Positions 1,701 through 35,598 of a stretch of 64,000 nt of DNA are shown in pieces. Made by a program: the position numbers and the translations under genes. The DNA comes from Mastigias papua (lineage: Eukaryota > Cnidaria > Scyphozoa > Rhizostomeae > Mastigiidae). Position 1 is the first letter of the stretch. Each line of letters begins with the position of its first letter. The stretch lies in assembly GCA_964019165.1 (NCBI GenBank), contig OZ025271.1:16772459-16836458 (forward strand), given 5' to 3'. The notes under the pieces are model-generated. The model worked only from the letters and a program-made list of their open reading frames with translations. It was not told the origin of the DNA and ran no database searches.

Positions 1701-1819
1701 TGTCACTTACTGGGTAGATGTTAGACGTAAAATTAAGAGCAATCTTTAGGAAGCTATACCTTAAAGAGTCAATCCAATTGAGAGCCATGCTACATTCTTT
1801 ACTGAATAAGCTTTTTGCT

Positions 1820-2285: not shown

Positions 2286-2385
2286 CTGGCTATATATTTC
2301 GGTTCACCTTTCGGTCGTTATCCGGCATTTCATACTCTGACGAGTGTCGGAAGAAAAAAGCTTTCAATAAACTTTAACCTGGTAA

Positions 2386-13798: not shown

Positions 13799-14233
13799 TA
13801 TTACAGTTATTATTGTTACTATTTAAATCTGAGGTTGATGTATTTTTTGTTTTGTTTTTTCTTGTTATGTGCAGAACTCAATTTGCAGACTTGCCAATTA
13901 CGCACTGCCTTATTATAGTGAGGTGTATGATTGTATTATTATCATGAGGTTTCAAAATTGTATGTAATCTATATTTGTTTACTAAACCTGACAACCAGTT
14001 GTACGTTGTACGACGTAGGATTGAGTATTTAGTTGATATGTTTTAAAGATTCGAAGTTTAAAAAAAATTAAATAAACGATAAAATTAAGCTTTGCTTATC
14101 AGATAATTGGAATGCTGCTTAGAAGTATCCCAATTGAAGGCACAATAAATTTAAATGCTAAATAACCAGAATGGACCTCATTCCCGCTGTTTGTAAGGTT
14201 TAAAATACGTTGTGATAATTTAATTACATTCAG
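13799..14233. other. AT-rich intron stretch
   Basis: No gene is seen. It includes possible 3' untranslated sequence of the preceding retroelement, ending in an A-rich run near 14060, and then a normal polypyrimidine-poor acceptor (ATTCAG) for HEPN exon 3. Confidence 0.4.
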
Positions 14234-14800
14234 GTGTGTCCGAGGCCAGAGAGAATTTTGTGAAGATGGCTTACATTGTCGTGGAGATGATTCCGAATCA
14301 CTTTAGAACGTTATTCACAAAGCAATGGAATAAAACTTATCCGGATAAGGTATGGCAAAGTAACGCAAAAAGTGGACTAATTCTGAATGATCATTTAGGA
14401 TATGATTTCAAGAAAGATATGAAAAAAAATAAAAATTTCATTGACAAGATAAAGACCGGAAATGAAAAGGAATGGGATACAACAACATTAGCGAAAGTTT
14501 TGCTGCATTCTGATCTCAACCTGATCCAAGAGGATAATACGCGAAAGGGGATCAGTCAATTAGTTGATATAAGGTATAATGATTTTGCCCATCTATCGAG
14601 TGCATCAATACCAGCAGATAAATTTGAAGAAATGATAGAAATAGTCAAGACTTCAGTAAGGAATCTACTTGGAGAAGGTGCTGAAGATGAAATTGATCAG
14701 GTTGTACGCCTGCAGCAAGCCCAAGACGGGGCTAATATTGAACTGCGAACGGCCACAAATCGAGAGTCTAAAACAGAAGGTAGTCAAGCCCTGCAGAAAG
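14234..14800 (+). CDS. HEPN-domain exon 3 (DZIP3-like HEPN), spliced to NACHT exon
   Basis: A third and more diverged HEPN exon. It reads ARENFVKMAYIVVEMIPNHF, then GNEKEWDTTTLAKVLLHSDL, then VDIRYNDFAHLSSAS and VKTSVRNLLGEGAEDEIDQV. The R-x5-H motif (RYNDFAH) is retained. There is no ATG before the domain in this exon: the open frame begins at the acceptor (CATTCAG at 14233), so it must be spliced to something upstream. The donor is AAAG/GTAAGC at 14800. Entry and exit are both phase 1. Its exit phase matches the NACHT exon at 15535 exactly (G + AT gives a codon, then LLRKKYRQQ). I infer a HEPN(x1-3)-NACHT protein, a known invertebrate NLR-like architecture. Confidence 0.75.
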
Positions 14801-15534
14801 GTAAGCGCAAATTGGTGATTTATTTCATAGAATTCTTTGTAATCCCTGCAATATACTGGTCTTTTTATGCTCAATTCTGCAAATATTGCATTTTATAAGA
14901 ATGGACTATAGGTGCTTTCCTACCTATACTTAATTCGTTATGTTATTCTAGATCCATTGTTCATAGTTTATATATGTATTGTCTTCTAAATATAAATTCA
15001 AATATATCGCTGACAACAAGAATCTCTTGCCTCTGACTACTGCACAAGGGCGAGTTTTGTCGCCAAGGACTGCGGATTTGTCTTCTAGCATTTCAGGCTT
15101 TGTTCCTAATGACAGAAATCGTCCCGAGTACAACAGGCTTAAAGGTCACTAGGGGTATCCAATTGTTACATCACGTGTGGGAGACCTTTAATATTTCGAA
15201 GGAAGAAGCGGATATGAATCGATCTTATTTCAGTGTAGAAGCAATTTTGTTTTATGCAACCATCTATGTTTTATGACTATCAAACAAGTGCATAGGATAA
15301 CTGGCCTTATTATTGTTTTCGGCAAGCATTTTTTCATCATATTTGATAATAAAAATTTTTATGGGATTTTAATCTTTGGAATAGTGCCTTCATTTCATCA
15401 TTTTGCTAAATATTCATTTTCACTAGTTTGCTACCATTTTTATATATTTACTCATTGTTCGTTGGCAAGGATTGCCACTCCAATTGATTTGTGTACTCTA
15501 TCTTGTGATTTATAAAGGTAATTTACTATTTAAG

Positions 15535-16661
15535 ATCTGTTGCGGAAAAAGTATAGACAACAGATGTATGAAAAGCATAGTATTAACAGTATTGGTGCCA
15601 GCAATAGCATAGAATTCAAAGAGGTAAAGATTGAGGAGTTTGCTGTTATGATAACGATCTCCCCGTATTCAAGAGCTTTTGATGAGCCTAATGATGAAAG
15701 TAGCCGGCAAGTGCATTATCTGAGAGATGTCACAGATGGCTCTATTAAAATGGACCAGTTGATCGATAAAAAAAATCGCGTATCATTTGTCTGCGGCGCT
15801 GCAGGTATGGGAAAGTCCGTTCTTGCGAAACGATTAGCTTGTGGATGGGCGAATGGTGACATGTATCAAGAATTCAAATTTTGTATCATGTTCGAATGCA
15901 GGGAATTGAATTACTTCAAGATACTAAAAGATGTACAAGGAACTCATCTTACAAGGGACAAATTGGTATGTAATTTTCTAGAAGAGACATTTTGCTGCCA
16001 CTTGGGAGATGGAGAGGGAATTTTGTTTATCGTCGATGGTCTCAGTGACCTCTACGACATTAACGATGATTCCATCATCGGGCAGCTACTTGACCTCGAC
16101 CGCACTGCGTATAAGAAATCGGAAATTATATTACTAGGAAGACCCCATATTGACAGCGTGCTGCAGAGGTATGAGCGCATAGGGGGCTTGCGACAGCTGG
16201 AGATTGTTGGGCTAGATGATGATCAAATCAAGTTATTCATCAACGCATATCCTTTTAAAAACAGTTTGTCAGTTATGGATAAAGTAAAAGACTCACTAGA
16301 CAAATATCGTTCAATCCTACGTGTCCCTCAGTTTTTGAACACGTTTTGTTGTGTTGCTATTTTAACAAATGGAGAGGTAATTCAGAATCCAGTCGAGTTG
16401 TATTGTTGGACCTTATACCTGTTACTAACTGAACATACCGTCAGCACAGATGATCTCGAGTTGACCCCAAACGTTTTCCGGAGATATTCTGATTCATTGT
16501 TAGCCCTGAGTAGTATCTGCTACGAATTACTGACAAAAAACACAACCATTTTCGAAGGAAATATTCTAGAAAGGTTTCGCAACATTACGGTGGGTAGGCA
16601 CTTTGCTTTAAGCCTATTTATTGTCTCCGATTGCTCCACTGAGAGATATCAGTTTGCCCAT
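15535..16661 (+). pseudogene. NACHT ATPase exon of an NLR-like protein, cut off by transposon insertion
   Basis: A P-loop NTPase of the NACHT family, the nucleotide-dependent oligomerisation switch of NLR immune receptors. Seen, counting from the codon at 15540: Walker A GAAGMGKS (residues 86-93), Walker B ILFIVDGLSDLYD, where the usual DGLDEL acidic pair reads DGLSDL, sensor-1-like LLGRPH, and winged-helix segments VPQFLNTFCC and VELYCWTLYLLLTEH. The frame ends in YQFAH, the conserved FxH near the end of the winged helix. It then runs straight into transposon sequence at 16662, whose terminal repeat supplies the stop at 16671-16673. The acceptor is TATTTAAG at 15534, phase 1. The expected continuation is found at 32571. 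Only the native part is given as the span. As it stands the gene is interrupted and probably not functional unless the element is spliced out. Confidence 0.8.
16655..16661. other. Left target-site duplication (TGCCCAT)
   Basis: Seven bases, TGCCCAT, directly before the left terminus of the large element. They match TGCCCAC at 32571-32577, directly after the right terminus, with one mismatch. They lie in the codons of the NLR FAH motif. An 8-bp duplication with more decay cannot be excluded. Confidence 0.7.
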
Positions 16662-16726
16662 TCGTCCAATTAAATCATTGGACGATTTCCATTTTTATCC
16701 AATGATTAATCTGGGATATGCCCAAG
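16662..16726 (+). repeat. Left terminal inverted repeat of the KDZ element
   Basis: It begins TCGTCCAATTAAATCA and ends AATGATTAATCTGGG-ATATGCCCAAG. The right end read inward begins TCATCCAAAATAATCA and continues ATTGATTAATCCGGG-AATTGCCCGAG. The left copy has about 23-25 extra bases in the middle, which form a small internal hairpin (AAATCATTGGA / TCCAATGATT). Confidence 0.75.
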
Positions 16727-16762
16727 TCAGCATGCTGTTTTTGCATGATGAGATTGGTCATA

Positions 16763-16840
16763 CCGGATTAATCGTGGAATAGCCAGAGGAAACAGCTGTC
16801 TGAGCCTGCAGAGATAGGCCAATAAGGATTGATCGTGAAC
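16763..16840 (+). promoter_or_regulatory. Subterminal GGATTRATCGTG repeats
   Basis: GGATTAATCGTGGAA near 16764 and GGATTGATCGTGAAC near 16826 repeat the GATTAATC core of the terminal repeat just inside the left end, before the start codon at 16878. Subterminal repeats of this kind commonly bind transposase. They also lie where a promoter for the homeodomain gene would be. Function is inferred only. Confidence 0.4.
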
Positions 16841-16877
16841 TAGGATACTGAGAAGGTAGGAAGAGAGTCTTGGTACA

Positions 16878-19800
16878 ATGGCTGCGCGAAAGTTTTCCGA
16901 GGCACAAGTGGACTTGATGGAGAAAGAGTATAACGCCGGTTTAAACTCTGTCTCAGTAAAAAAGGTTGGGGATCAAATAAAGCGGTTAGCTGAAAGAACA
17001 GGCCTAGAAGAAGCCACTGTTAAAACGTGGATCAACAACAGGAAGCGAGGCCCACCTCCATCGTGCTTCCCTTCTACGTCTGATAGTAATAATGAAAGTA
17101 AAGCCAAGAAAGCGTTGAGGGTGCCCTCCATTTCTCGTCAGCCCTCAGGATACAATATGTTTGCTGGAAATTTATTTTCAAACGGTGATTTTGTAAATTT
17201 TTCCGTGTTCTTTCGTATGTTGTCAGGGATCGTTGTATTGACAACGTGTCCTATCACTAGTCAGTTAATTGTTATTTTTTAAGTAGGAAAGACAATATAG
17301 ACTTACATGAGGAAGGTAATTGCAACCTCTATAGAGTCCGACTACTTTGAATAAATACGATTGTGTTGATGACCTTCAATGTGAATGTCATTGTGTGTTA
17401 TTTTCCCCAATTGGCATCACCGGTCGTGCACTGTGATCTGGATTGTTCAAAAGCACTATGAAAATGCGCGGGAACTCTAAGGACTTTTGTCTTGAAACAT
17501 TTAGGTAAGTCAAGCGGCAAAAAGCAGGCCTTTTGTCGGTTTCGAAGGGATACAATGTATATTTGATGATATCTTCATTATAAGTGATAATGAATTGAGG
17601 TGTAACTACGGAATATTTTATTTGTAAGTTAGTTTCACATATTTTCAATAAACTTTGAGATATGTACCGCAGCCTGCTGTGATATGTAAGGGTTAATTTT
17701 GAAGGAAAAGCCAACTACTGTATTTGTGAAATGGCGGAAGTTATTGTTGCATTTCTATTTATTTTTGCTATTGATATATGAATGTGTTCTACATTTGCAT
17801 TCAGTTAGGACAGATAACAAACTGAAATATCTGGTCTATGAATGGAGAACAGGAATGCTACTATATGGGAATGAGCCTACTCAGCTCTAGAGAGGGAGGC
17901 TGTCAGCAGAAAGCAGAAATGCATTATGCTGTTGGTTTTCAAAAGGTTTTTGTAAAAGCCACTAGACAGGCCATGTTAGCTGGCTGACTTAGTAACCACA
18001 CATGATACTAATAGGATACATAACCAGTTAGGCATTCCATTTCACTACTGTTGATTAAATTTTGTCTTTGCTGAATAATTGTTTTGTAGAACACTGACAG
18101 CCTATTTTGTGTTTTGCTGCCTGTCTACTCATCTGCAATATTGCTAACATAAAATCTTTATACTTATGGCAAATTGAGTTTGTGTTTCATACCCATGTTG
18201 ACTAGAATAATAATAATGTTAATGATAATAATTGTAAATGATATACAAGTTAATTTGAGAGGCAACACAGCCATGTTAGTAAGCTATTTTGGTATCAGTT
18301 ACTCAAGTAAAGACCATGGAGTTTTTCCATAATGCAGAATTACGTGGGTGCCCCATTTCTGAAAGGAATACTGTTGCAAGTAGAAGGTGGCGAGAATTGA
18401 ATAATGAAGAAAAGCAGCAGTGGATTGAAAAGGCGAATAAAAGGGAGAAACCAGCTTTGGAGGATCTGACAGAAAATCAAAAGAAGAAACTGGTTGATGC
18501 AGCCCTTCATCGAATAGATGTAGAGGTACATGATTCTGCCAATAGATGTGCCATAGAGTACAGAGGCCTAATTTTTAAGTTTCATTAGAAAGAAAGTTAT
18601 AGACATCCCTTGCATGGTTGCTTCAGTTATAGGAAGCATTGGAACAGTCCTTCACTAATTAAGTTTGATCATTTATTGAAAAAAGTTTTTAATAGTAGAT
18701 CAGATAAACAGGAAAACTATTAGACTTGCACTAGAACTAATGATGGGACATAGAATGTAAATGGTTGAAAGTACTGTCCTCTTTATAATGTCTGAGGATG
18801 AAATTTGCAGTGATCATTGAAACTTAGAGGTATGTTAAAATCTTACTTTATATTGTTTGAAAGCCAATGAAAATATGACTACTTTGCTACATGGTTTTTC
18901 ATGTTATGCTCCTTATATGCTGGTGGAATCCTTCTAGCATAGATAATGAATAGTAAATGTGGCTTTCAAACCAGCATGTTACTATCTATATGTGTAATAG
19001 CTTACCTCAAGTATGAATAGCCTGTATTAAATATAACTGCAATGTTCTTTACCATGCAGATGCAAAATTTATCCCATTATGGGGGAAGGGGTATAGCAAT
19101 TGTGTTGCGACCATATGATGATAAATTGGTCATGTCTTCAACTGCTGGTGATGAAGAGTTTCTGCTAAAGAACACCAGCATACTGAAAGAGTTCTCATTA
19201 TTTACATGTAAGATATATGTCATGTAATGAAATGTTTGAAAGTTATTGTTAGAGACAATGTAACAGGAAACATAGTATGAAAGGGAATGAACTATTATTT
19301 GAATGCTTTTGCTTTGGAAGCTATATGTTTTCCCTTTAGATATTGGCAAGTTTTTGAGTTATTGTAAAGTTGAATGCAAGAAATGCATCTATTTGGATTG
19401 GTTTTGTAGTGTCAGTCAAGGACTAAGAAGAAGAGAAGAATGAATTCAGATGGGTGCTGCCTACTTAGCTTATATCATATATAGTTTTGTTTTGGATGAA
19501 AGCTGAAACAAAAAAGATAACTAGATGCTGGTGTGAAAATATAGTAATGGATTCTATGAAATTGGAGAACTTTGCACTATATAACTGTACATGCCATGAA
19601 GTGAATGATAAGAAACACAATCCTATCACTTCCTCTCCTGTCTCATTATATGATGAATTAGGTAATGGTTTGTGTCGAGTAGGCATGATTGGACTGTCGC
19701 ATTGTCAAGATAGACAGTTTTGCAAGCATTTTAGCTTATTAGTATACTCCTTTTTCCTTACCATGGCACTACAGTGCTATAATGAGACAGTAGAATTAGC

Positions 19801-20971
19801 CCCATAAAAACTCCATAAAACCATGACTAGTTATACAAACATGCACTGACCTTATATGCAACCTGCGAATGCCAAATTTCCATTCTTCTTTTCATCAATA
19901 GCATATTGCAGAAGACAATTTACTTCTTAAAGTGAATTGCGTTGTTGTGGATATGACTTATTTTGACTGTAACCTTTCTTGTAGCCAAGAAGGACCCATG
20001 TGATACTGAGGTGACAGTTAAAAGTGTCCAAAATTTGCTAAATAAGAAATATAGTGAGTGAGAATTTAGTTCATTTTATCTGCTTTTTTCTTTAGAGCAA
20101 GATAGCTTTGTTTCACATAATTAAAGGATTTTTGATGTAAATGTGGTAAAAGTTAATGCTATTGCTATATCTTTAAAAGTTATCGCTATAACATTAGTTA
20201 ATTTGGAATAGACTTATATTTCACTTTTATTTTTCTCCCACATAATGCTGCAAATGCTCACTTAGATTATTGTTTTTTATGTGCTTATTTGAAGGAGAAT
20301 GTTTTGACAGAGTGAATGTGGAATACTCCAAGAAAGGCATAAAATTCAATGTGGAGGGTTGGCCTGAAGATGTTCCGTTTAGACAGCCAAGCAGATTAGG
20401 TGGTGTTCAATTGAGAAGAATATGGGAGAAGAGAGAAGAAATATCGTTTTCGCATAATATCGTAACTGTGATCACACAACGAGAATGTCAGTCATTGGTA
20501 CCCGAAAGCAAGTATGACGAGCAAGAGCACTCTGACCATGAGGACGAAACAGAGATTGAAGAGGTAGTTAGCTTCAGTGAAGAAACCGGAGCAACAATGA
20601 AGAAAGCAAAGTCAAAATCATTGGTCAGGAAAGGAGATGTTATTCCATTATTAGCTCCAGGTGTCCTTGACTGTAGATTTTGGCTTTTCCTATGTGGAAG
20701 TAAATGCAAACGGGATGGTTCCATCAATGGCAAATGGTTGGACAGAATAGGGGAAACTTTGGAATATAGGGTCTTGCCATGCCGGGATACAACTAGAGAG
20801 AATTGTATTCTGTGGAACGCCAGAAAGAATTGCAGGGAAGTTCTTTCGAGTGATAGTTTCGACAGGTTGGATCTTGCGAAAGGAATCTTTGTCTTGTCAG
20901 TTGCAGCTCACAACTATTTAAATGATCTTGCTGATTTGCAACTGCAATCTGTAGCAGACGATAAGGATTAG
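16878..20971 (+). CDS. Homeodomain plus HMG-box-like protein, five exons, transposon cargo
   Basis: The exon model is 16878-17184, 18338-18525, 19060-19207, 19985-20053 and 20295-20971. All junctions are GT-AG with matching phases, giving 462 residues. Residues 4-62 form a homeodomain: the third helix reads VKTWINNRKR with the expected W, N and R. Residues about 88-140, across the first intron, read like an HMG box (SGYNMFAGNLFSN, then RWRELNNEEKQQWIEKA). The last exon holds GWPEDVPFRQPSRLGGVQLRRI, which I do not recognise as a named domain, an acidic stretch (DEQEHSDHEDETEIEE) and a Cys/Trp-rich C-terminus. It is probably a nuclear DNA-binding protein. It lies just inside the left transposon end, convergent with the transposase. 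By analogy with fungal KDZ elements that carry divergent HMG proteins it may assist transposition or target choice. That role is inference. Confidence 0.7.
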
Positions 20972-23900
20972 AGAAGTAGTCCGCAATGTCCATCTATCAT
21001 GAGTAGATCTTTACTAATTTAGATCCTGTCATGCAATTCTCATACTTTTGGGTGGCTTCTGCAGTACAATAGAAGGGGGTTGGAGTAAAGGAGGGGTTGG
21101 ATTTTGACCTGAATTATAATAGAATGGGGGTTTGGGAAAAGTTCCGAAAAGGAAGTCACTTAATAAAACAATATTAAGTAATACAACATATCTCATCAGC
21201 TGACTTTCTTTATGCTAGTTTATGTTCACACTGGAGAGTACCTCCAGAAATTGTCTTGGGTGGGAGCTAATTTGACAATTAATAGGCGGGGCAGAAATAA
21301 GAATTTTGTTATAACCTAGGCCCTCAGGTTAACAGGGAACTGTCCCTTAGAGTAGATTCACACAGAAAACCAGAATACATCTAACACAATGGGCTTGATC
21401 TATGTAAATGCAACATTTCCGACGATTGCAGATTTTAGCCTAGCCATGAATAAAAAGCACGAGGAAGATGCAACCACAACAACATTACAAAGTTCAAGAT
21501 GGTGGCTTAGAACATAAACAATAATAAAGTTCAGGATACAAGAAATGCCCTGGCTGGAAAGTGTTAGAAAAATGATTATCGAGGGGGATGTTTATTAGGC
21601 ACCAGAGAGTACTTGAGAAAGGCAGTGCTCTCAATTTACTACTTCGATAAAACATTGATATTTGTTGATCGTTGGGCCTACTGCACCGTATTTTGTATCG
21701 CATCGTACGGTCTTGTTTCCCTGTGATCATATCTTTTTAATAAGAAACTACTCTCCAGTCCGGAATAGAAGGGGGGTGGCAATAAGCGGGGGGGAGGGGG
21801 TTGGAAAAAAGTCTCAAAGCAAATAAGCGGGGGGGGTTGCAATAAGCGGGGGGGGGTGGAACAAGCTCCTAGGTGAATGTCTATGGGGTTGGCTGTTATA
21901 AATGGATGTGGAGAGAAGACCAACATATGCATTAGATGAAACTTAAAACTTTTTGAAAAAAAAATTTAATACGTTTATTACATATTTCCAGCATGCTAGA
22001 AATGTGTCTATCATCGGCGTTCAGAATGTCATCATCATTGGCACAACTAACTGCACCGTTTTCAGTGCTTCTTGCAGCAATTACGCATTTCACGCTAGCA
22101 TTTTTTCAGCGCAACAAACATTCACAAGGAGTTACTTTCGCCGGACAATTCTTGGTCTGGTTGGGAAAATTTCCTCTTGGCTCAAAATTAATAAGCGGGG
22201 GGGTTGCAATAAGAATGTCCTGGTGTGCATTTTTTGAAAAAATAAATAGTCGGGGGGGACGTCTATTCCGGACTGGAGAGTATGTAAGAAACAAGGATAT
22301 AAGAAAGACGAGGCTCAGAACAGCAAAAAGTAAGAAACGAGTAAGAAACACAGACAGGCTGAGTTTCAACAGAAAACTTAAAAACATGTTTTTCCGAGAA
22401 ATGTTCCATTGAATTGGAAACAGAACACAAACAGCATCCGTCTCTCTCAATGTGTTTAACTAAAATTCAATTGCTCCTCTCATACTGGCTCTGTTACTAT
22501 AGGAAATTGCAAAAATTTAAGAAAACACCTCAGAAACATTGCAGGCTATATTACACAAAATGTTAAGAACATCAAGTCTGAAGCGAGAAACTTTGTTTCT
22601 TATATAACAAAGCGTGTAGTATGACTTGCACTTGTGCAATGTGATTAAGGTAGGAAAATTAGGTAACTCTTCCGTTACTCACTCTGAAAAATATATGAAC
22701 ATTTGCATGTAAATGGACTGTTTTTGAGACATAAACTATTGTTCGAATTTTCCCAATACAAACAATTGAAAAATTTTCACGAAGCGCGATATTGATCATT
22801 AAGAAAAGGGGCGACTTGTCCCCTACATCTCCCATTGCATGTTAATTTTACAAGACAATGACATTTCCCCACCATTATTGATACACCACTGGTATGTCAT
22901 GGTACGTCAGTCTGGGAAGTCATTTTGTCTGCACCCCCCTCCCCAAACATTAGATTGCAACACTGTCAATTGCAATCACGCAGTAAAAGTAAAGGACTCC
23001 ATTGGTATCTTAACACCATGTACCACATAAGTAACAAAATGTAAATAAGACAAAACTGTTTGCTGCAGTCAGGCAACTAGGAATTTTCGAGGGCAGGGGT
23101 CCAGTCCACATAAAAAGGCACACCAAAAATTCAGCTTGGGATATTATTCAGGCTTAGAAGAGGCCGTAGCTAAGGGGGATTTTTAGGAGAGAGGGGGCAC
23201 ATGGCGACTACTAATCTACTAAGTGAAACCCACCATGGTTGGGTCCGACGCGACAGAAAATGTTTCAAATTTCACCCCTCTGGACTGGCCCAGAAAGGCA
23301 TCTGCCGGGCTAAAATTTTGCTGATTAGTATAGTGCTCAATGGTCCAATGTATCCACGAAAAAATTAAAAGAAAAGCAAACTTGAGACTAAGAAGTTTCA
23401 TGAAAAATGTTCTCAGTTGAAGTCTTCCATACTCCAAAGGTGCAATGCCTGATGGATGAAAAACAAAGCAAGACCCCCAGGACCCCCCCCCCCGTAGTTG
23501 CGCGCCTGGCAGTTGTGAATTGATTTTATAAGAAAAATGAGCAGCCTGCAAATATATCATTCGAGGTTAAATGAGCCGGGTAACTTTCGACAGATCAGGA
23601 GAAATGCTGGTGGGCATTATGAATGTCAGATTGTTCGTACACGAAGAATGCGCATATTTCAGTGTTTCTACTAAATCTCTTTCAGTTTTTTATCTCATGT
23701 TTATATTCAGTGGTGTAGATAGGGAAATACTATGGAAAGTAATACCCGGGGGTTCTAAGAAATGGGGAGGGAATTTGAAAATAGAGCACATGGATATTGC
23801 GAAGAACAACTTACCAGAATTGACTAATGATGCATTGTCAATTACAAGCAGGTTCAAGGAAATCATACTTGTAATGTCAGGGATTATTTCGTAAATTTCT

Positions 23901-25540
23901 TGTTGGTGTCTGAGTAATTGACAAAAGTCCCTGGGAAAGATACTATTTAACAAAAAAATCTTCCAACTTAATAAATGGAGAAGGATTGCACTCAGTGCGG
24001 GAGGTGGGAAAATATTTCCAAAGTTGAAAATTTGGGGGATTATTGGGTACTCAAGAGTATATGAGGGTTTTACACGACTGCGAACAATGTTTTAGCCCTG
24101 TTTTTCCTTTTCCACTTGGGTCTCAATATCCTTGAAGGTTTTCTTCTTTGAATTGAAGGTGATAGTATGTAATTCTCATTCAGTAGAAAGATATATCTCT
24201 TCGGTGATGCAGTAGAAAGGTATATCTCTTCAGTGCTGTCGTGTTAAGTAGCCGAAGAAGGGGGCGGTCTAAGTTGTGCGCTATTAAATCGACTGCACAC
24301 ATGTTCACACCAAGGATGAATGTATAAATATTGAAATTGAAAGATGTAGGAGGATTTACACGACTTACATAGAGTTTACAGTAAAATGCACGTCTTTCTA
24401 TAGGAAAGCTTTTAGAAACCCTGCAATGTATCGTTCACAATCCATGTATGATTTGAGTTGAAGCACTGTATGAAGAAAGTGTTACCTATTCCTTCCACTG
24501 ATGGGCATAATTTTGGTTTGGGAGAAAACTCAGGGGATAAAAGGGGGTCTGTGCTGCTAATCTTTGCAAAGGTCAGGCCCAAGAACTTATTATACACCAC
24601 AGTGATACACAAACAGAGAGACAGTGCAGAAACAACAGTACAATACATAGCCTATAACTCTAAAATATCTTTTCATTAAAGCAGTAGCCATTATTGTCAC
24701 GAATACTAACCTTCTCCAAGTATATGATTTATGATCTTTGCAGGTATCTAAACTCCAGTTTACAGCAGGACACAGGAAGTAGCAAGCTATCATTTGAAGG
24801 AGGACTGAGCTACCACCCAAAAAAATTATCCCTCTTCTAGGGCTGGGCAGGGGCCCAAGTCCATTTCCGGTCCACCAATGCTTTCAAGCCAAACTTGATA
24901 TGTGTTAGGAGGCTTGTGAACGTGCTTAATGTAGCCTTCTTTATTATACTGGCTGAAAATCACTCAGCGTTAAGTGTTGTTATTAGGGCAATATTTTTTA
25001 GAATAGTTTTGAAATGAATTGGTCATGTGGAATGCTACATAGACCCAATACTCACTGGAGAAAGCAAATTATGGACACCATGGATAATAAAGCGATAATC
25101 AGGGGTGTAGTATCTACGAAATAGTTACTAATTACAATTTATTTTTAAGAATAACAATTTTTAGTTATCTCCTTTCAATGATAGATAATTTTATGGATAT
25201 GAAATGTTTACGAATATTGAAAAATAGGGAATTGACATCCTGTCTTAAACAATAGCTTCCTTTCAAAACCGTAGCTATCACGTGGGTGCTATGAGAAACG
25301 GCAATCAACGCGTGTACATAGAAATTGTGCAGTTAATTGTGTGTTGATGCAAAGCTAACTGTGCTAATTGTTCACTACACGGTTTTTACTTCAATGGCTT
25401 CACTACTGATGAATTATTTCAAAATGAAGAACGTTATTTTCTGCTCAGAGAGAGATGCGAGGAGGTTTGACCAAAATAATAGCAAGCAAACTGTATTTAT
25501 CACCTGTATGCATGAATGTCTAGCATTTGCCAGTAATTAA
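20972..25540. other. Spacer between the two transposon genes, with nested repeats
   Basis: No gene is seen. It contains the MITE at 21749-22284 and G- or C-rich patches at 21070-21140 and 23160-23510 that resemble ends of other hAT-type MITEs (GTAGCTAAGGGGG near 23166 and CGTAGTTGCGCGCCTG near 23490). There is also a 29-bp tandem duplication around 24180-24236 (CAGTAGAAAGRTATATCTCT twice). Confidence 0.4.
21749..22284. mobile_element. MITE nested inside the KDZ element
   Basis: Terminal inverted repeats TACTCTCCAGTCCGGAATAG (21749-21768) and its reverse complement ending near 22282. The interior repeats AATAAGCGGGGGGG several times near the left end and again near 22190. The flanks share TAAGAAAC (21741-21748 and 22285-22292), an apparent 8-bp target duplication. 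There is no coding capacity. Confidence 0.7.
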
Positions 25541-28500
25541 TTAATAGTCGAATAGATCATTGTCAAGCAAATTTTCCTCCCATACTTCTTGTTCTGTATC
25601 TATATTTTCATCAATGTTCTCATCCATTTCCCCTTGATAGTTGCCAATGTCCAGCTGCATCATAGGTATATTCAAGACTACAGCTTGGCGCTCATGTATT
25701 TCCCGCTTGATATCATCAAAGTTAAGCGGTGACCCTTCACATAAGTAATTGGTCTCTTCAAACAAAGAAATAGCCTTCGCAGCAAAAAATGTCAATCTTG
25801 ATAGCTCTTCATACAATAGAGCTTTAGAACCAATGGTGTACCTACTCGTCCCACCTAGGTTGCTTATAGCTGATTGTAATAATTGCCGTTCATGTACTAT
25901 GAAGGCAATTACATTGTGAGCATCATTTCGAAGCAACTGAATTTCCTCTAGGGATCTCTCCCACGTCAAATAGAAGTTGACCGCCTTAACTTTAAGACAT
26001 GTTGGAACCCGTGGATCATCATTCATGATATCCAATTGTGAGTAAATTTCACTGTCAATGTCGAAAGCTGTCCTCTTCTCAATTACTTTATCTCTCATAC
26101 CAGGGATGAAGCTGTTGAGGTATACAACTTTCTTGTTGAACGGCCGCAACAACTTGTCAATGCTGAGAACCTTTTTGTTGATGGAATTTGAGAGTGACTT
26201 GGCAAGCTTCTGTCCATCTGCATGGAATATGCGAAAGCAATATAAGAATACAGGCATCAGTAAGAAGTAGACGCTTAAAAGCTATATAGATTTCTAAATA
26301 CATTGAAGTTTAGAAAAAGGGCAACTTTAGAAAATTTTGCAAACTACTTTTCCCCACACCTGCAAACTTTCTTTTCAGGCTGAGTAAGAAAGATCTTTCA
26401 AAGGCCATAACTCGCAGGTTTCTTAACAGTTCAACTCGTTCATTGTCAATAACATCAACGACCAACTGTTTCACACCATCTGCACTTAGATCCCAACGGC
26501 GCTGTACTTTGTATAGCTTTTCGAATTCCTTGAGGTCTCTCTCAGAGCTGAAAAGTAAAATGAAGCTTAGAAGTGCTACCTGCTAAAAGGTATAGCAAAA
26601 CGTATAGCATGCATCATACTCCCTATTTTCCAGTATGGTTTTTTTATGATTTTATGACCTGCTTTGTTGATGGAAGATTTTGCTAGTTATGTATAACAGT
26701 CAAGGCAAATGTCACTTCACGCTTTAAATTCGAGCTGCATATTTCATTGATAATACCTCCTCAATAACGAAACATTCAGGGCGACTGTCTCCTCATTTTC
26801 ATTTTCCATCATAAGACTTTGCCTAAAAAAAAGGCTCGGAACATAGACTTTGGATAACAGAAAGAATTGTACACAGTCAATCAAACCAATAGTATATATA
26901 GAAGCTGTCTGCAAAATCAAGCTTCAAATACCTCAGCTGTCTATTGGATAGAATCTTCTGGATGTACTGTCTTTGCCAAGAACTGGGATCATCAGATGAA
27001 GACTCTAAGAGTAACATAACGCGACATCAAATTTACGTTTACAAATTGCATGAAAGGTAGAAGCTGACATTATCTCCCATCGTGAGTTAATAGCAGTAGA
27101 AGAGGAGCGAGAAATGGCTACGTAGTAAAATGTAAAATATCAGGCCTTGTCTTCACAAGGAAGGAAATAGACGGTATCTAACAGTAAATTAAAAAGGCAC
27201 TTAGGTATCTAACAGTAATTGTGATATTTCACAAATATCCTTGCTGCAGAGAAATTGAAATATAATATGAGACCTCATTTATTACTGCAGATAACTGAAT
27301 ATATATTCGCTACTTTACAGGAGGAAGACATTTTAAGTCATTCAACAAGAGGTGAGAAGATTGCAAACCACTCGTTGGAAGAAACCTTCTTCGCTGTTCT
27401 TCAACCCAAATAGAAACATCATCAAATGATGCTGCAAGGTATAATTGAATATAAGGTAAAATCAGCTTAAGAAAAGAAGACATAAAAATACATAACATTC
27501 TTTCGTAAATTGCATTGTTAAGTATGATATATCAATATACAATATATGACATAGAAACCAATTATCTAACAGACTACACCTACCAGGGATAGGAAGAGAA
27601 TGAAGTAATTGTTTTAATTGTTCCTCTGATTCAACTACCAGTTTCTGTGCTTTTACAAGCCTCTTACATAACAGCATAGCTAAAGAGAGGGAAATTCTAA
27701 ACATGAATCATAATCTTCATAAAACAAGGTACACTGTTGCAAAATAATGTACCAATGTGCCAGCGATTCATAGATCAGAAGTTGAAACTCCTTCATAAAT
27801 CATAACGTACATAATCAGCTATACAGATAAATGGAATTAAATCCTTACGAAGTTTTTCCATCTTTTTATTAGCATAGTATAGCAAAGCATCTGTCAGAAG
27901 GTCACTTCTGTTTGCAGCTGACATCTCTTTAGTAATGGAGCTGAAACATCGCAAATAGGACCAAAGGCGTTCACATTGCTCTCCATCTGTGAGACCTATT
28001 TGTTTACAATACTTTGCTCCAAGGGCTATCTGCAAGCGACATGAATAAACATATAACGATGATACTCATTACCACAAACGATCCTACCGAATGCAGTTTA
28101 TTATATTGGGAATATGTCTGAAAGAAAACATTACCGATAGGGATACGCCTGATAGGTGGCTAGAAATTTCAATGAAATTATGCGACTCATTAATAACAGG
28201 CAGTGTATCATAAAGGTCCAAAATTTACCTGACATGATGGTCGATGCGCATAAGTATGGAATGCTGGCAATGCCAAGTGAAACTTTTGCAGCAGTGATTC
28301 TTGATTTGAACTCTACAGTTGATGAATAAATGGAATTTACCCTTAAAATACCAACTACTGATAACAGTGCTCTTCAGTAGACCTAATGACAGAACTAACT
28401 TGCTAATGATATGTCACATATTGATTATCTGATTACTCCATTCCTTGAATCACTGTCATTCTCGATACTATTCTAGATGTACTTGAATTTGACAGGGCAA

Positions 28501-31500
28501 CTCGCTCTTTCATGAATGGTATACATGTGTTCATGGTGATTTTTATTCAACACCAAACAGAATGCAAGTATACAGTATGGAAGAGTAAGCTCACCACAAG
28601 GTGTCTCTTCAAAATACATGCTATATCATAGCTGATGTGTAATTCAAGGTTAGGCTTCAACAGGAGGCTTTCCAAGTGCTCCTTTATCAATAACACAGGG
28701 TAGGCAATTCTGAAAAAGAAGGAGGAATCAAGATAATATTAAAGTCAGCATAGAACTCACCCTTCTGGTAAAAGCTATATTCAAGCTACTATGTCACATA
28801 ATCATTTCATAGAGTGAATATTACGCAACAACTAAACAAATTGGACACAAATTTAGGCAATTTGATATAACATGATAAATGCCACTTCTAACTATCTTCA
28901 AGGAAATCAAGTTAATCTCATAATGAGACAATACACATATGTGGAGAAACAAATTGATACCTATCACATCTAGGAATGCATTAACTCTGCACATGATTAA
29001 ATACCTTTCACCATGCTTCAAATTAAAAAACTTTTGAGGAAACTCATGACGGCAAACTGAACCAAATACTGCCTTTATATCAAACAATTTGTTCCTGTTA
29101 AGATTCTCAGCCACTGCGGATCCTGCATTAAAGCTGCTGCAATCCTAAATGAAATGTATACACCAATTCAAATCTCATTTAAAGACACAACTAATAATCA
29201 ATGCAAATAACATCATTCTATAAAATATCAAAGACAGCCAAAAATGCCCATATAAAAAGCATGGTATAACCTTTCTCAAAACTTTTGTATGTTTGTATGA
29301 ATGCACAAAGTGATCCACATTGTCCTGGTCTATAAAGAAGAGATCTCCATGACGACTGGGTAGAACATGCTTAGAAGCTGATTTCTTCCTAACCAGCCCA
29401 AAGCAAGCATCCATTGTTAAGTACACAGAACCATATTCCTAGCATTCAAAAAAGTACTGACATTATATCATGGCTTTCAATTCTATTTATTGCATTTCAA
29501 ACAATTATCTAGTAGGTGCAATAGTGATAGAAACAGCAAGTTAGTGTACACTTCTCATTTTATAGCCCAGTAGGTGAGGACTTGCTAACACCAGTTACCC
29601 ACTTAACTCCTAAAAATCAAGTTGCTAGCTAGCCATGGAGGGACTAATCCCCTTGCATATTATATGAAAACAGTGGTCTTGTGTAATACCACTTCAACCC
29701 TAACAGAAATATCATCATGTGCAGGATGATGTATGGAAGTTACTGATGGTTTATGTAATTATTGTTCTATTTCATAGCAACTGTGATCTGTGATGATGTT
29801 CTACAGAATATATTTAACAAATGATGGTTAGTTTTCAGATGTTTCAGTAAACACATTAATGTTGTCTAAAATTAACACTCCATCTAAATCACATTGCATG
29901 ATACTGCACTGTCTTTTACCACTGTATGCAACAATCAAACAATGCAAATTTCTTGCTCATTTTGCAACCTTACCTTTGGGCATGCAGGACATGTATTTCC
30001 CTGACTCCTTCCAGGACAAATCACTCCTAGGCTTCTCACATTATGTCTAAAAAACCTACAAGAAATAGTGGAATGCAATTACAATGTAAGATCCTTTGTA
30101 TATTTAACACTAACCATTTACTCTACCAAATTTGTGCATGCTAACATAAAAACAAAGGCAATAGAGATATTTATCACTGCAAATAAACTTAATCCATTCA
30201 TATCCCATTAGTATAGATGAATATGCTGAAATTACCTATATTCTGCAAATGTATGTCCTTTAAGAGCTCTATAAATATCCTTTCCCTGAAAATCAAGAAG
30301 TGAATTCAAATAATCTGCATTTTAGGTATGGTCATCAATAACTCCAAAAATCCAAGAACGACAGCATTATGACAATACACTCCAATATTGCATAGGAGTC
30401 AAATGATCAAAATCATATATTGCATCCAGAAAATAAATTGACATATTGCCTATAAGGAAAAGGATCAAAATCACACATTGTGCTTGATCAATTTTGGTAA
30501 TGCTTCCTTAATCCCATCACAAAACCCCTTCAATGATGTCTGATTTTCAAGCAGCAGACTCTCTATTCTATCAAGGAACTGAAACTGAAAGCAGAATTGA
30601 GGCTTGCATGGAGAAGCTGGCCAAAGGCCCTGTAGAATGAAATAAATTGCATCATTTCGACAGGAACATAGCTCGATATTTGCAAGGTGCTGCCTCCCTA
30701 AAACAAAAAAGAAGCCATAGTCCCTTAGAAATAATAAATGTATGAAAAGGGTAGAATTAATAGGCATCCAATGAGATACTATGATACATCTATAAAGAGC
30801 TGTAGATAGTGCTCTCAGTTGTCTAAATATATATACATACATACATACATACATACATACATACATACATACACACACACATACATACATACATACATAC
30901 ATACATACATACATACATACATACATACATACATACATACATACATACATACATACATACATACATACATACATACCAGTACACCATGATACTGACTAGC
31001 ATCATTTGTCATTCAAAAATATTCATTGTGAAATTTCTCAAGTTTACAAAATTATTTATGTCAAAATATATACCATAAATGTCAACAACTATCACCATCC
31101 GAACTGATCTTGTACAACCATCTTTATGCCACATTGTGGGACAAGTCAGGTGTGGTATTGGTTGCTCCATAAATGGACAGAACTCTTGTCCATTCTATGA
31201 TTGAAGAGATGTAATGTGCCAACTATTAACATGCTACTTATCTCTACTTATCTTCATTTTGTGAAAAATCTATCCACAAATCATTATGAATACAACAAAC
31301 ATTGCAAAGGTATAACAAATGAGTATAACAGAAACTATTGAAAGCTATTAGATGGAGACACTTACACTGAAGCTTAACTGCCCATTATTACATTATCTCA
31401 ATTTCCTGATATTTTGTTAAGTTTTGTTTGCCATAAGAACAGCTATTCTATATTATACATAACACAAGATTCATAATTTAGCATTTAGTGTTAGACACGT

Positions 31501-32430
31501 GCAGAGAAAGCCCAAAACGTGCCCCTAAATCACTTAATTTTTTGACCATGAGTTACAGACATAAGGGGATTAGTCAGCACATGATATATGATATAGCTGT
31601 CGCAATTTATGATGAAATCTAACTAGTACTTCCTGAAAAGCCTAGATAGAAAGGATCCTTACAATTACAAGAGTAATGTGCACATACATACCAACCAGTG
31701 TTCCATGTAATGAAAGTGATTTCTAAACTGGTGCAACTTTATTCCACAGCTTTTGCAAAAAAACTGACCAGGGCCACAGTCACGACATCGTAGGCAAGCA
31801 GGTTCAATTTCGCAAACCATGCACAATTGATCATATGGCATACCTTCACTTTCAATGGCCGCAGTAATCAGTTTCTCTCTCAGCGCAGTCCATTGATCAT
31901 TTAGATTTTGCTGATGAGCACGATAGGTCGTATTACTTTCCACACAGTCTGATTTATTCCTGTATAATAGATATTTATGTACTGTATGGAAATGACGTGC
32001 CCTCTTAAGTAAAGAAACTTAATATTGACAAATGTATAACTCGCGCTGTACTGGCCGAAGCAACCAGAAACAACTCGCGAGCTTTATACCGCACAAAGTT
32101 CAATCAGTTTCCATACTAATACAAGCTACGTTTTGCAAATAAATACCTTACTGGTTTACACTACCTGAATGGTTGACCTGCATCATCACAGGGTATTTCA
32201 CTTTCGTCTAGGGTGAAGTATCCACCAGTTGCTACCCTTGATCCTGCATTGTCACACTCACTTTCCTTCCCAATATCCCTCGAGCTGTTTCCAGCATCTT
32301 GAGTGCCAATCACTTCTCTTGGTGAAAATTTAAGAACTGTTGCGTTTGTTCTCGCTGAGATGACCTCTATATGATCGTCAAACACCATTAATTTTCTTTT
32401 TTTCCCCTTTGGCTTTTGCCTACCCGCCAT
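25541..32430 (-). CDS. KDZ transposase with CxC3-like zinc cluster, 17 exons, intact
   Basis: Minus-strand exon model: 32430-32165, 31959-31692, 31194-31074, 30697-30477, 30285-30236, 30055-29974, 29438-29271, 29144-29005, 28709-28595, 28312-28229, 28029-27849, 27679-27584, 27431-27369, 27004-26932, 26822-26757, 26547-26360, 26217-25541. Phases agree throughout, giving 952 residues with no stop. Seen: a basic N-terminus (RQKPKGKKRK), a cysteine cluster at 135-165 (CMVC, CLRCRDC, CKSC...H) matching the CxC domains linked to KDZ transposases, TMDACF with D346, CRHE (423-426), YDIAC (467-471), LPAFHTYAHRPSCQ, and DGEQCERLWS (520-529). A GQKLAKSLSNSI segment and an acidic tail follow. These are the conserved motifs of the RNase H-fold KDZ transposase, which cuts and rejoins transposon ends. 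The least certain junctions are the donor at 27369 and the donor at 30477. Intactness suggests recent activity or host use. Confidence 0.85.
30833..30975. repeat. Tetranucleotide microsatellite (ATAC)n
   Basis: About 140 bp of ATAC repeats with a short ACAC interruption near 30872, inside an intron of the transposase gene. Reading frames of repeated MYVC type across it are artefacts. Confidence 0.95.
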
Positions 32431-32528
32431 TTTTTACATAACCTCCTTCACAATTCATATAGATTACAGTAATGATAGCATTGCTTTGTGCAAACCATGT
32501 ATCTTAGCATGCGCAGGCATCTGTTTCT

Positions 32529-32570
32529 CTCGGGCAATTCCCGGATTAATCAATTGATTATTTTGGATGA
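32529..32570 (-). repeat. Right terminal inverted repeat of the KDZ element
   Basis: Read inward from 32570 it begins TCATCCAAAATAATCA, continues ATTGATTAATCCGGG and ends AATTGCCCGAG. It pairs with 16662-16726. TGCCCAC follows it at 32571-32577. Confidence 0.75.
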
Positions 32571-33508
32571 TGCCCACAGATTTCTACAGACATGCCTGGG
32601 TGCTGATGGAATTTCTCTCTGCACTTTACATATGCAAATCCGAAACGCCATTGGAACTTTTGAAGGAGAGGTTCAAAGATGAATTAGCTGAAGATATCTT
32701 ACATGCATGCCGTTTAATGGCAGGATTTTCCACTTCGAAAATCATTAACCTCCTTCTTAGTAATTTCATGGTATCAAATGAAGGACATGGGGTGCACTTT
32801 TTATTACAAATGTTGCATGCGGTGAGTGAATTCAATTCAGCGAAAGACAGACAATTCAGCTATTCGATTCAAATTCTTCTTTGCTTGTTGAATACGAATT
32901 TGACAAGAAAGGAGGATCTTCATTCAGTCATTACCAAGTTTGAGTGCAGAAACTTTGCATCAAATGTAACAGATACAAATACTCTTATGTATATTTGTAG
33001 AAAGTTATTAGAAGAGTACAGATACTCTGAGGATGAAGTTATGAAGGATTTTGAATGCGTAAGCTTTGAAAGTTTCAATGTAAATAATACCAACAACTTT
33101 CATTACATAAGCCTATTCAAGCTTAGTGGTGGAGTAAAGTTGTATGACATGCAGTTGAATTCTAGCGCTGTTCAAGAATTGAGGGAAGAAGTTTTAGGTC
33201 ATTGTAAGTGGGTAGAGATTGCAGACTGCAAATTCAAAGATGAGAGTTATGATCAGTGTACTTCCATGGCAGCATTGAAAAAGCTAGCGATCAGTAAATG
33301 CATATTGAATATAAACGCTTTTACACTACTTTGCGGTTGGGGATTGTCTAGTGAAGCTTTTCACCTATGGGATAATACAATGGAAAATGAATGTTGGAAT
33401 GAGTTGGTGTCCGGTATGGAGGAAATGAAAAATAAAGATGAATTGCAATTGAAGGTATTGGATGTAAAGCAGCAGTCTAACCAGATTGCCACAGATGCAC
33501 AGAGGAGG
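32571..33508 (+). pseudogene. Second half of the split NLR gene (end of winged helix and downstream repeat region)
   Basis: In the frame of the upstream NACHT exon this begins AHRFLQ, so NACHT ...YQFA plus HRFLQ would rebuild the FAHxxxQ motif across the insertion. The next expected residues, EFLSALYICKSE, are present but one base out of frame: 19 bases separate CAG from the GAA that starts EFLSALYIC. In that second frame 32610-33508 is open and reads LACRLMAG-type helices, then weak leucine-rich-like segments (ALKKLAISKCILNINAFTLL). The donor is AGGAGG/GTAAGA at 33508, phase 0. So besides the transposon there is an independent frameshift, or an unusual splice using the CTACAG just before it. 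The function would be ligand sensing and autoinhibition in an NLR. The domain family of the tail is not certain. Confidence 0.65.
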
Positions 33509-33731
33509 GTAAGAGGAAATGCTAGTTATTTATTTGCTCTGCTAGTTAGTATCCACTGGTTATAACGTCACAGGAATTTATAGTCCACTAATTATTACAT
33601 AAAAAACGAGAAATCTGCAGAAGTCTGTAGATTTTAACGTTTGCACTTCAAATATTGGATACAAGAGCAAGGGGACATCAGTGTTATGGTTGGTCAGAGT
33701 CATTCATACGAAATCCCGTAATTTTTGAAAA

Positions 33732-35469
33732 GTTCCCATGTGACCCATTTCAGATTTTCCTCAAATTCTCATTATAAACTACTCCCACGGAGAAAAGAAC
33801 ATCCTGAAAATCATAGCTTAATAGAGCAATCCTATGAAAAGTTATAGGCAATTGAAATTTAGCTGATTTTGCATGCAAAAGATTTAAGATACTCTTTTTC
33901 AGTTTCAATGACCCATATCTTCATAGATACTTGTAGAAATGAGTTAAAATTTTGCACATATGCAATGTTTTACCCACAAAAGCAGTTTTTAGGCATTATA
34001 TTTCGCCAAAGATAAACATCTTCCAAAATAAATAGTGCCAAAAATGCTAAAGATTGCCAGTTAAAGGAGGTCGTCTTACATTTCAAGAAGCTCTACTAAT
34101 AATACACAAAGCACAACAGAGTGTATGCTTGATTTTCCGATTCCTTGGTCTAGTTACAGCAAATGTATTTTTAAAATGAATATTATAAAGCAGCATAAAA
34201 TTGTAAGATCAAAACATGTATTTGTCTGGCTTCTACTTTTTCGGAAAACTTCGAAAAATACCAACAATTGTTAGGTCCAGAAAGTTGCGTAATCAGGTAG
34301 AATAGAGTATGAGACTTTGCAGGCTGAAGGATCTTCTTATAATCTGTCATTATTGATAATTAGAAGACTAGTACTGTCCTTATATAGCAAGGGCAGGCAA
34401 GGTTTTAACTGAGATACATTATTTGACGTTTTTCGGTTGTACAGAACAACCCTTCAATGCCAATTACATATCATTTTGAGATCTGTGATGACAACAGAGG
34501 CCAATAATAGCTTGACGTACATTGAAACTTCATTGAAGAAGTCGGATAAAATATTGTTGGTCATAGGACAGAGTGTATTATAGGTACTAAGATCATAGGG
34601 TTTGTACAAAAATAAAGTATTACGAGATTTTGCCGACTCTTCATATGGTGAAGAACCAAATTCTTCAATGAAGTTTCAATGTGCGTCAAGCTATTATTGG
34701 CCTCTGTTGTCATCACAGATCTCAAAATGATATGTAATTGGCATTGAAGGGTTGTTCTGTACAACCGAAAAACGTCAAATAATGTATCTCAGTTAAAACC
34801 TTGCCTGCCCTTGCTATATAAGGACAGTACTAGTCTTCTAATTATCAATAATGACAGATTATAAGAAGATCCTTCAGCCTGCAAAGTCTCATACTCTATT
34901 CTACCTGATTACGCAACTTTCTGGACCTAACAATTGTTGGTATTTTTCGAAGTTTTCCGAAAAAGTAGAAGCCAGACAAATACATGTTTTGATCTTACAA
35001 TTTTATGCTGCTTTATAATATTCATTTTAAAAATACATTTGCTGTAACTAGACCAAGGAATCAGAAAATCAAGCATACACTCTGTTGTGCTTTGTGTATT
35101 ATTAGTAGAGCTTCTTGAAATGTAAGACGACCTCCTTTAACTGGCAATCTTTAGCATTTTTGGCACTATTTATTTTGGAAGATGTTTATCTTTGGCGAAA
35201 TATAATGCCTAAAAACTGCTTTTGTGGGTAAAACATTGCATATGTGCAAAATTTTAACTCATTTCTACAAGTATCTATGAAGATATGGGCCATTGAAACT
35301 GAAAAAGAGTATCTTAAATCTTTTGCATGCAAAATCAGCTAAATTTCAATTGCCTATAACTTTTCATAGGATTGCTCTATTAAGCTATGATTTTCAGGAT
35401 GTTCTTTTCTCCGTGGGAGTAGTTTATACTGAGAATTTGAGGAAAATCTGAGATGGGTCATATGGGACC
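33732..35469. mobile_element. 1.7-kb near-perfect palindrome (foldback or long-TIR element)
   Basis: The left arm 33732-34540 and right arm 34661-35469 are reverse complements with only scattered mismatches, separated by about 120 bp. The ends read GTTCCCATGTGACCCATTT on the left and, inward from the right, GGTCCCATATGACCCATCT. The centre also has short complementary stretches (GTCGGATAAAAT against GTCGGCAAAAT). There is no coding capacity. The arms are about 810 bp each. The high arm identity indicates a young element. It probably lies in an intron of the NLR tail. Confidence 0.85.
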
Positions 35470-35598
35470 ATTAGGTGACTTAACATGGAAAAGCACACAT
35501 CAGTAACTGTCAATTTCTCATTTATGTGAAAAGTTCTTTACATACAAGACAATTGTATGTAGTTACCCAAAAACATACAATTTTACTCACTTTTATAG

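What the first reader, a model, noticed from the sequence alone, without database searches (positions are those of the whole stretch)
16662..32570. A 15.9-kb two-gene KDZ transposon in an animal genome
Seen: imperfect terminal inverted repeats (TCRTCCAA...AATCA, then GATTAATCYGGG...TGCCCRAG), a TGCCCAY duplication on both sides, an intact 17-exon transposase and a convergent homeodomain/HMG gene. Host codons stop and resume exactly at the termini. Established: KDZ elements carry accessory genes in fungi. The combination and size in an animal look undescribed to me.
Basis: partly seen in the sequence, partly recalled or inferred. Interest (0 to 1): 0.92.

Follow-up and report, generated by a model that had tools for sequence, protein, structure and literature searches.

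The report
Two-gene KDZ transposon in an animal
A 15.9-kb piece of mobile DNA carrying a transposase gene and a second gene for a probable DNA-binding protein has jumped into an immune-receptor gene of an apparent animal, and a nearly identical copy on another contig shows its exact ends and that the two genes move together.

Summary
The finding is real, but its ends are wrong. The window lies in a 346.8-Mb assembly that holds a second full-length copy on contig C17, 99.44% identical over 15.9 kb. The C17 copy is flanked by an exact 8-bp duplication, CTATCAAG, and its ends read 5'-CA...TG-3'. On the left, the window copy seems to have lost its duplication and about 7 terminal bases. All 120 listed receptor relatives read through the insertion point. 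Both genes are intact in both copies: a 17-exon, 952-aa KDZ transposase (E = 3.7e-41) and a convergent 5-exon, 462-aa homeodomain + HMG-box + GTF2I-like protein. Relatives of the two genes carry consecutive EukProt gene numbers twice. Best reading: a two-component cut-and-paste transposon whose second protein probably helps recognise the TAAT-rich ends (inferred, untested). My paper searches showed no such pair in an animal.

The parts
15534..16661 (+). Host gene, left part: NACHT receptor (NLR) exon, interrupted after codons QFAH
   Evidence: PF05729 E=1.4e-13; 120 of 120 listed relatives continue without interruption
16662..16663 (.). Two junction bases (TC); the left target duplication and about 7 terminal element bases (CACCCCT in the C17 copy) are missing here
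   Evidence: comparison with the C17 copy, L012 and L015
16664..32598 (.). KDZ transposon, window copy (15,935 bp; C17 copy 15,976 bp when its two nested inserts are left out)
   Evidence: 99.44% identical to G000:C17:2629799-2653721, which has the 8-bp duplication CTATCAAG
16664..16726 (+). Left terminal inverted repeat (offsets 8-70 of the intact end)
   Evidence: 41 of 63 ungapped against the right end in the window copy; 45 of 70 in the C17 copy, random maximum 35 of 70 in about 20,000 pairs
16704..16711 (+). GATTAATC motif, left copy 1
   Evidence: 3 in the whole 64-kb window, all in the element's ends
16766..16816 (+). Left subterminal repeat, holding GATTAATC copy 2
   Evidence: 79% of 52 columns inverted against 32500-32551; motif at 16766
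16878..20971 (+). Accessory gene: 5 exons (16878-17184, 18338-18525, 19060-19207, 19985-20053, 20295-20971), 462 aa, homeodomain + HMG box + GTF2I-like repeat
   Evidence: intact in the C17 copy with 2 codon differences
21749..22282 (.). Nested short inverted-repeat element between the two genes; its left end was also found in the C17 copy
   Evidence: 21-bp inverted ends; left end in C17 at 2636364
25541..32430 (-). KDZ transposase gene, 17 exons, 952 aa
   Evidence: intact in the C17 copy, 7 synonymous and 5 non-synonymous codon differences
32529..32598 (-). Right terminal inverted repeat; GATTAATC at 32544 and palindrome TAATCAATTGATTA at 32547
32571..32577 (+).
   Evidence: same bases at the same place in the C17 copy
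32599..33565 (+). Host gene, right part of the NLR (resumes GGTG-CTG-ATG-GAA, ...LMEFLSALYIC)

Best explanation
This is a recently mobile, two-gene cut-and-paste DNA transposon of the KDZ superfamily. Shown: two nearly identical full-length copies at unrelated sites; short inverted repeats with CA...TG ends; an 8-bp target duplication at one copy; a transposase and an accessory gene open in both copies. Inferred: the KDZ transposase cuts at the CA/TG ends and inserts with an 8-bp stagger. The accessory protein (homeodomain, HMG box, GTF2I-like repeat) acts with it by binding the TAAT-type motifs (GATTAATC, TAATCAATTGATTA) near the ends and bending or bringing together the 16-kb element's ends. 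The window copy disrupted an NLR gene and later lost its left terminus by a small deletion, so it is probably no longer mobilisable.
For: Second copy at G000:C17:2629799-2653721, 99.44% identical (15,836 matches, 89 mismatches, 54 gap columns), different flanks, exact CTATCAAG duplication. Corrected inverted repeats 45/70 ungapped in the C17 copy; 0 of about 20,000 random pairs reach this. KDZ domain E=3.7e-41 with CxC1 and CxC2 above cut-off. Both reading frames open in both copies. EukProt relatives of the two genes have consecutive numbers twice: gene768-60/gene769-61 and gene6783-7548/gene6782-7547. 120 of 120 listed NLR relatives uninterrupted, as are three paralogues within 100 kb of the window. 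For end binding: GATTAATC occurs 3 times in 64 kb, all in the ends; GATTA and TAATC together are counted 7 times (overlapping, at four places) in 276 bp of ends against a mean of 0.51 (0 of 20,000 random pairs); the homeodomain's last helix reads W-I-N-N-R (that its last N is the usual DNA-contacting residue is recalled).
Against: No target duplication is visible at the window copy itself; I explain that by a deletion I did not observe. The motif test is after the fact: the motif was chosen because it lies in the inverted repeats, which share it by descent. No binding, excision or expression data. Homeodomain and HMG-box scores are barely above cut-off. The accessory model is low confidence (mean pLDDT 43), and the transposase model of an amphioxus relative had no significant match among solved structures (0 of 410 matches with E<=0.001), so an RNase H-like DDE core was not confirmed. 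Nine of the 13 KDZ matches in this genome belong to other elements; seven of those nine were held with short flanks (about 3.3 kb each) and showed no accessory gene.
Confidence: 0.85

Rival explanations
1. The accessory protein is a passenger that protects the element from silencing or regulates host chromatin (as TET/JBP enzymes are thought to do for fungal KDZ elements), and is not needed to cut or join the ends.
For: Fungal KDZ elements carry TET/JBP genes thought to counter methylation (abstract and passages of PMC12730594). The accessory's domains match transcription-factor families.
Against: It has no enzyme domain above cut-off in Pfam, and homeodomain-type TAAT motifs are concentrated at the element's own ends.
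Confidence: 0.35
2. Two separate mobile elements or genes that happen to lie side by side, carried to C17 by an ordinary segmental duplication.
For: Copy number is low: two full-length copies found (such counts are lower bounds).
Against: The shared block ends exactly at matching inverted repeats and at an 8-bp duplication at C17, with unrelated flanks; relatives of the pair have consecutive gene numbers twice.
Confidence: 0.03
3. The insertion is now spliced out as a giant intron and the NLR gene still works.
For: Both NLR halves remain open. By eye, a site-like TTTCTACAG lies just before the right junction.
Against: That AG belongs to the element (it is in the C17 copy); the left flank offers only a weak GT by eye; no transcript data.
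Confidence: 0.05
4. The window copy inserted without making a target duplication, rather than losing it later.
For: No 8-bp duplication links its two flanks.
Against: It also lacks the first 7 element bases that the C17 copy has, of which a third, partial copy shows at least ACCCCT, so material was lost at that junction.
Confidence: 0.15

Closest known systems
Zisupton / KDZ elements of animals (fish Zisupton; Pristionchus pacificus Zisupton)
   Same: KDZ transposase; many exons (18 and 31 in the two P. pacificus families), terminal inverted repeats, recent activity (passages of PMC9297572); 8-bp duplications for Zisupton (passage of PMC12730594).
   Different: The passages I saw describe only transposase genes and, for P. 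pacificus, no detectable duplication; none mentions a second gene with homeodomain, HMG and GTF2I-like domains. The founding fish paper was not available to me.
TET/JBP-carrying Kyakuja, Dileera and Zisupton elements of fungi (PMC12730594)
   Same: KDZ elements carrying a second gene; Kyakuja has 5'-CA..TG-3' ends, as here.
   Different: Their second gene is a dioxygenase; Kyakuja makes 7-bp duplications and has no inverted repeats, while this element has 8 bp and inverted repeats.
Two-protein transposons such as Harbinger/Nuwa (transposase plus a Myb/SANT protein)
   Same: Works like: a transposase and a separate DNA-binding protein in one element (Nuwa as stated in a passage of PMC12730594).
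   Different: Unrelated transposase and different DNA-binding domains (that Nuwa's transposase is unrelated is recalled).
Vertebrate TFII-I family (GTF2I, GTF2IRD1)
   Same: One I-repeat: PF02946 in 4 of 4 accessory proteins (the window's and three relatives), best E=7.8e-10; solved I-repeats match at E=1.8e-6.
   Different: A single repeat, joined to a homeodomain and HMG box and carried by a transposon; TFII-I proteins have several repeats (recalled).

Membership tests
KDZ superfamily | KDZ transposase domain (PF18758) | tested here: met
   E=3.7e-41, 141.6 bits against cut-off 26.6; tree groups it with animal KDZ proteins
KDZ superfamily | CxC cysteine cluster N-terminal to the transposase domain | tested here: met
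   CxC1 35.5 bits (cut-off 26.9) and CxC2 28.5 bits (cut-off 27)
KDZ superfamily (Zisupton/Dileera type) | 8-bp target site duplication | tested here: met
   CTATCAAG on both sides of the C17 copy; not seen at the window copy
KDZ superfamily | terminal inverted repeats | tested here: met
   imperfect: 45 of 70 ungapped in the C17 copy, 41 of 63 in the window copy
KDZ superfamily | catalytic D, D, E residues in an RNase H-like core | tested here: inconclusive
   D316, D435, E490 and E493 (P0004 numbering) at least 90% conserved in 84 proteins; the model of P0004 is confident (pLDDT 83) but has no significant PDB match
Kyakuja subfamily | 7-bp duplication, no inverted repeats, CA..TG ends | tested here: not met
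   CA..TG ends yes, but 8-bp duplication and inverted repeats present
Zisupton or Dileera subfamily | branching with named subfamily members | not tested
   no named reference sequences were in the tree
Homeodomain / HMG-box proteins | domain match above Pfam cut-off | tested here: met
   window protein: homeodomain 24.4 bits (cut-off 22.9), HMG_box_2 22.5 (cut-off 22.4), both only just above; of 4 members 3 match the homeodomain and 2 HMG_box_2 at E<=0.1 (one member lacks the N-terminus)
TFII-I family | several I-repeats | tested here: not met
   one repeat only in the window protein

The most novel reading that the evidence does not exclude
A lineage of animal KDZ elements is obligately two-component: the homeodomain-HMG-GTF2I protein is a dedicated end-recognition subunit of the transposition complex, and the GTF2I-like repeat known from the vertebrate TFII-I factors shares ancestry with this transposon-carried module.
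Probability: 0.25. Interest if true: 0.75.

Novelty: new variant of a known kind. Interest (0 to 1): 0.55.

Why it matters
The KDZ transposition mechanism is poorly understood as far as I could see: the model of an amphioxus relative has no significant solved match, and a 2013 paper counted Zisupton among superfamilies without a DDE transposase (passage). Two nearly identical copies with open genes, one with exact ends and an 8-bp duplication, plus a conserved partner protein, make the mechanism directly testable in cells. The element also shows a homeodomain-HMG-GTF2I protein travelling with a transposon in an apparent animal, a possible source of transcription-factor modules, and a large transposon breaking a member of a tandem immune-receptor family.

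Tried and rejected
I first accepted it myself on a random-pair test (5 of about 20,000). The 8 extra residues at the right host junction looked like a small host insertion until the C17 copy showed they belong to the element.

Led nowhere: IMG/VR scans with both protein alignments and one GTDB scan with the accessory alignment found no relatives. Rfam: 0 matches at gathering scores. The accessory structure model was too poor to search. Foldseek of the KDZ model gave nothing significant. Paper search returned only unrelated papers in its 20 listed of 131,923, and 125 listed 5 of 10,470, none relevant. The solved-structure search with the joined NLR aligned only the NACHT part, not the insertion point. 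My first gene models missed or added exons; one accessory model had an exon that relatives do not have (removed).

Full report
WHAT IS THERE. Window 16664-32598 is a DNA transposon. It carries a KDZ transposase gene on the minus strand (32430 to 25541; 17 exons, 952 aa, no internal stop, GT/AG at every intron) and a convergent gene on the plus strand (16878-20971; 5 exons, 462 aa). Both models were hand-guided: unguided runs gave shorter transposase models (649-693 aa), and I anchored KDZ-like segments and adjusted exons to fit relatives. The transposase matches PF18758 at E=3.7e-41 and the KDZ-associated cysteine clusters CxC1 and CxC2 above their cut-offs. The second protein has a homeodomain, an HMG box and one GTF2I-like repeat. 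The first two are only just above cut-off. The GTF2I-like repeat is the firmest: 4 of 4 family members (the window's and three relatives) match it, best E=7.8e-10, and solved I-repeats match a profile of the family at E=1.8e-6.

THE SECOND COPY. The genome search placed the window at C6:16772459-16836458 of an unnamed 346.8-Mb assembly of 172 contigs. The KDZ domain and the left end both found a second copy on contig C17. I fetched it. It spans 2629799-2653721 (23,923 bp) because it carries two later inserts: 1,462 bp, and a 6,485-bp LTR retrotransposon with identical 476-bp LTRs. Apart from these the two copies differ at 89 of 15,925 aligned bases (99.44% identical, 54 gap columns). Both genes are open in both copies, with 12 codon differences in the transposase (7 synonymous, 5 not) and 2 in the accessory gene.

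THE TRUE ENDS. At C17 the left flank ends in CTATCAAG before CACCCCTGTCC, and the right end GACATGCCTG is followed by CTATCAAG. So the element has 5'-CA...TG-3' ends and an 8-bp target duplication. With these ends the two terminal 70-mers of the C17 copy match at 45 of 70 positions with no gap; the window copy matches at 41 of the 63 positions it keeps. In the window copy the right end is therefore 32598. The left duplication and the first 7 bases appear lost: shared sequence starts at 16664, after two junction bases. A third, partial copy (C6:5943574) keeps at least ACCCCTGTCC at its left end, so the longer left end is the older state.

THE HOST SITE. The element splits a NACHT receptor gene. 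The protein search scored 7,999 candidates, had 161 below E 0.001 and listed 120; the other 41 I did not see. All 120 have exactly three residues between the position of the conserved H and the [ML]-E-F-type motif, where the window's gene has the junction. 119 have H there and one (P0152) D; 117 fit [LI][ST][LIV]MEF and three differ by one residue. Since a split gene could hardly appear as one long protein, this shows the uninterrupted form, not its frequency. Three paralogues within 100 kb of the window are also uninterrupted (one with C instead of H). The window gene reads QFAH, then the element, then LMEFLSALYIC. The C17 copy also lies in an open reading frame that reads through when one CTATCAAG is removed.

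THE GENES TRAVEL TOGETHER. The two best relatives of the transposase are EukProt proteins named gene768-60_t and gene6783-7548_t (58% and 53% in alignment A2). Two of the three relatives of the accessory protein are gene769-61_t and gene6782-7547_t. Consecutive numbers in both pairs indicate neighbouring genes at two further loci; I could not see the species or the DNA. The third relative is from a JGI contig of 4,884 bp. In this genome the accessory protein gave 15 matches: 5 exons in each of the two full copies, and pieces at C21:1753026-1754909 (3 matches, the longest with 1 stop), C10:12980696 and C6:5946459, so older relics exist. Of 13 KDZ matches, 4 belong to the two full copies and 9 to other KDZ elements. 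For seven of those nine I held short flanks and saw no accessory gene, which decides little.

RELATIONSHIPS. In a tree of 21 KDZ proteins the window protein pairs with P0001 (96/90), then P0002 (100/100), then P0003 (97/98). The eleven non-fungal proteins (amphioxus, Rhopilema, Apostichopus, three EukProt, one more unnamed, and the window's) separate from ten fungal ones at 100/100; the program warned of long branches, above all the fungal P0028. P0010, a EukProt protein with the same naming style, sits at branch length 0.05 from a Rhopilema protein, so a jellyfish proteome is a likely source for that one; the source of P0001 and P0002 was not stated. That the window is animal is inferred from this tree and the NACHT family.

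HOW IT PROBABLY WORKS. Shown: mobility, ends, duplication, open genes, conserved pairing. Inferred: the KDZ transposase does the cutting and joining. Positions D316, D435, E490 and E493 of the amphioxus relative P0004 are at least 90% conserved in 84 proteins, and a confident model of it (pLDDT 83) places them at or next to strand and helix ends as an RNase H-like core would, by my reading; Foldseek found no significant solved match, so this is not confirmed. The accessory protein is the candidate end-binder. GATTAATC occurs three times in the 64-kb window, all in the element's ends, and GATTA plus TAATC are counted 7 times (overlapping, at four places) in 276 bp of ends against a mean of 0.51 in random pairs (0 of 20,000). 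TAAT is the usual homeodomain core (recalled). The motif was chosen after seeing the repeats, so this is a lead, not proof.

WHAT IS KNOWN. Multi-exon Zisupton elements with inverted repeats but no detected duplication are described in nematodes (passages of PMC9297572); fish Zisupton and F-box/CxC7 links appear in passages of PMC12062965. Fungal KDZ elements carry TET/JBP genes; Kyakuja has CA..TG ends but 7-bp duplications and no inverted repeats, while Zisupton and a Dileera element make 8-bp duplications (abstract, passages and section 3.2.1 of PMC12730594). A 2013 paper listed Zisupton among superfamilies lacking a DDE transposase (passage of PMC3706591). The one passage I saw of PMC10641963 concerns hAT transposons mistaken for GTF2IRD2. 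The listings (8 of 8 papers; 40 of 65; 20 of 131,923; 10 of 10; 12 of 12; 6 of 6; 0 found; 8 of 19; 5 of 10,470) showed no paper on a KDZ element with a homeodomain, HMG or GTF2I protein. These are titles and abstract starts, some lists capped. The founding papers (Bohne 2012, Iyer 2014) and Repbase were not available, so 'undescribed' is provisional.

VERDICT. A real, recently mobile two-gene KDZ transposon with corrected ends: a new variant of a known kind.

Noticed in passing
window 36800-60900: Tandem array of a 2,675-bp unit, about nine copies, neighbouring copies identical to two decimals, close to a run of 200 N (61124-61323); very recent expansion or an assembly effect.
   Followed up: partly
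window 33729-35472: Inverted repeat with 817-nt arms, 99% complementary, 110 nt apart, right behind the broken NLR exon.
   Followed up: no
window 5469-5936, 10192-10668, 14224-14895: Three mutually similar exons; two of the three match HEPN_DZIP3 weakly, below cut-off, and the third has no Pfam match. This suggests a tandem NLR family; three NACHT paralogues lie within 100 kb of the window (L019, L024, L029).
   Followed up: partly
L009:2410-8894 (G000:C17:2638409-2644893): A 6,485-bp LTR retrotransposon with 100% identical 476-bp LTRs nested in the C17 transposon copy, so younger than that insertion.
   Followed up: partly
G000:C17 flanks of the second copy (L015, L010): The second copy also interrupts an open reading frame that reads through when the flanks are joined; the two full copies known both lie in open frames.
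   Followed up: no
window 1718-2377: Open frame with a weak GIY-YIG match (E=0.0059, below cut-off), perhaps a Penelope-like element remnant.
   Followed up: no
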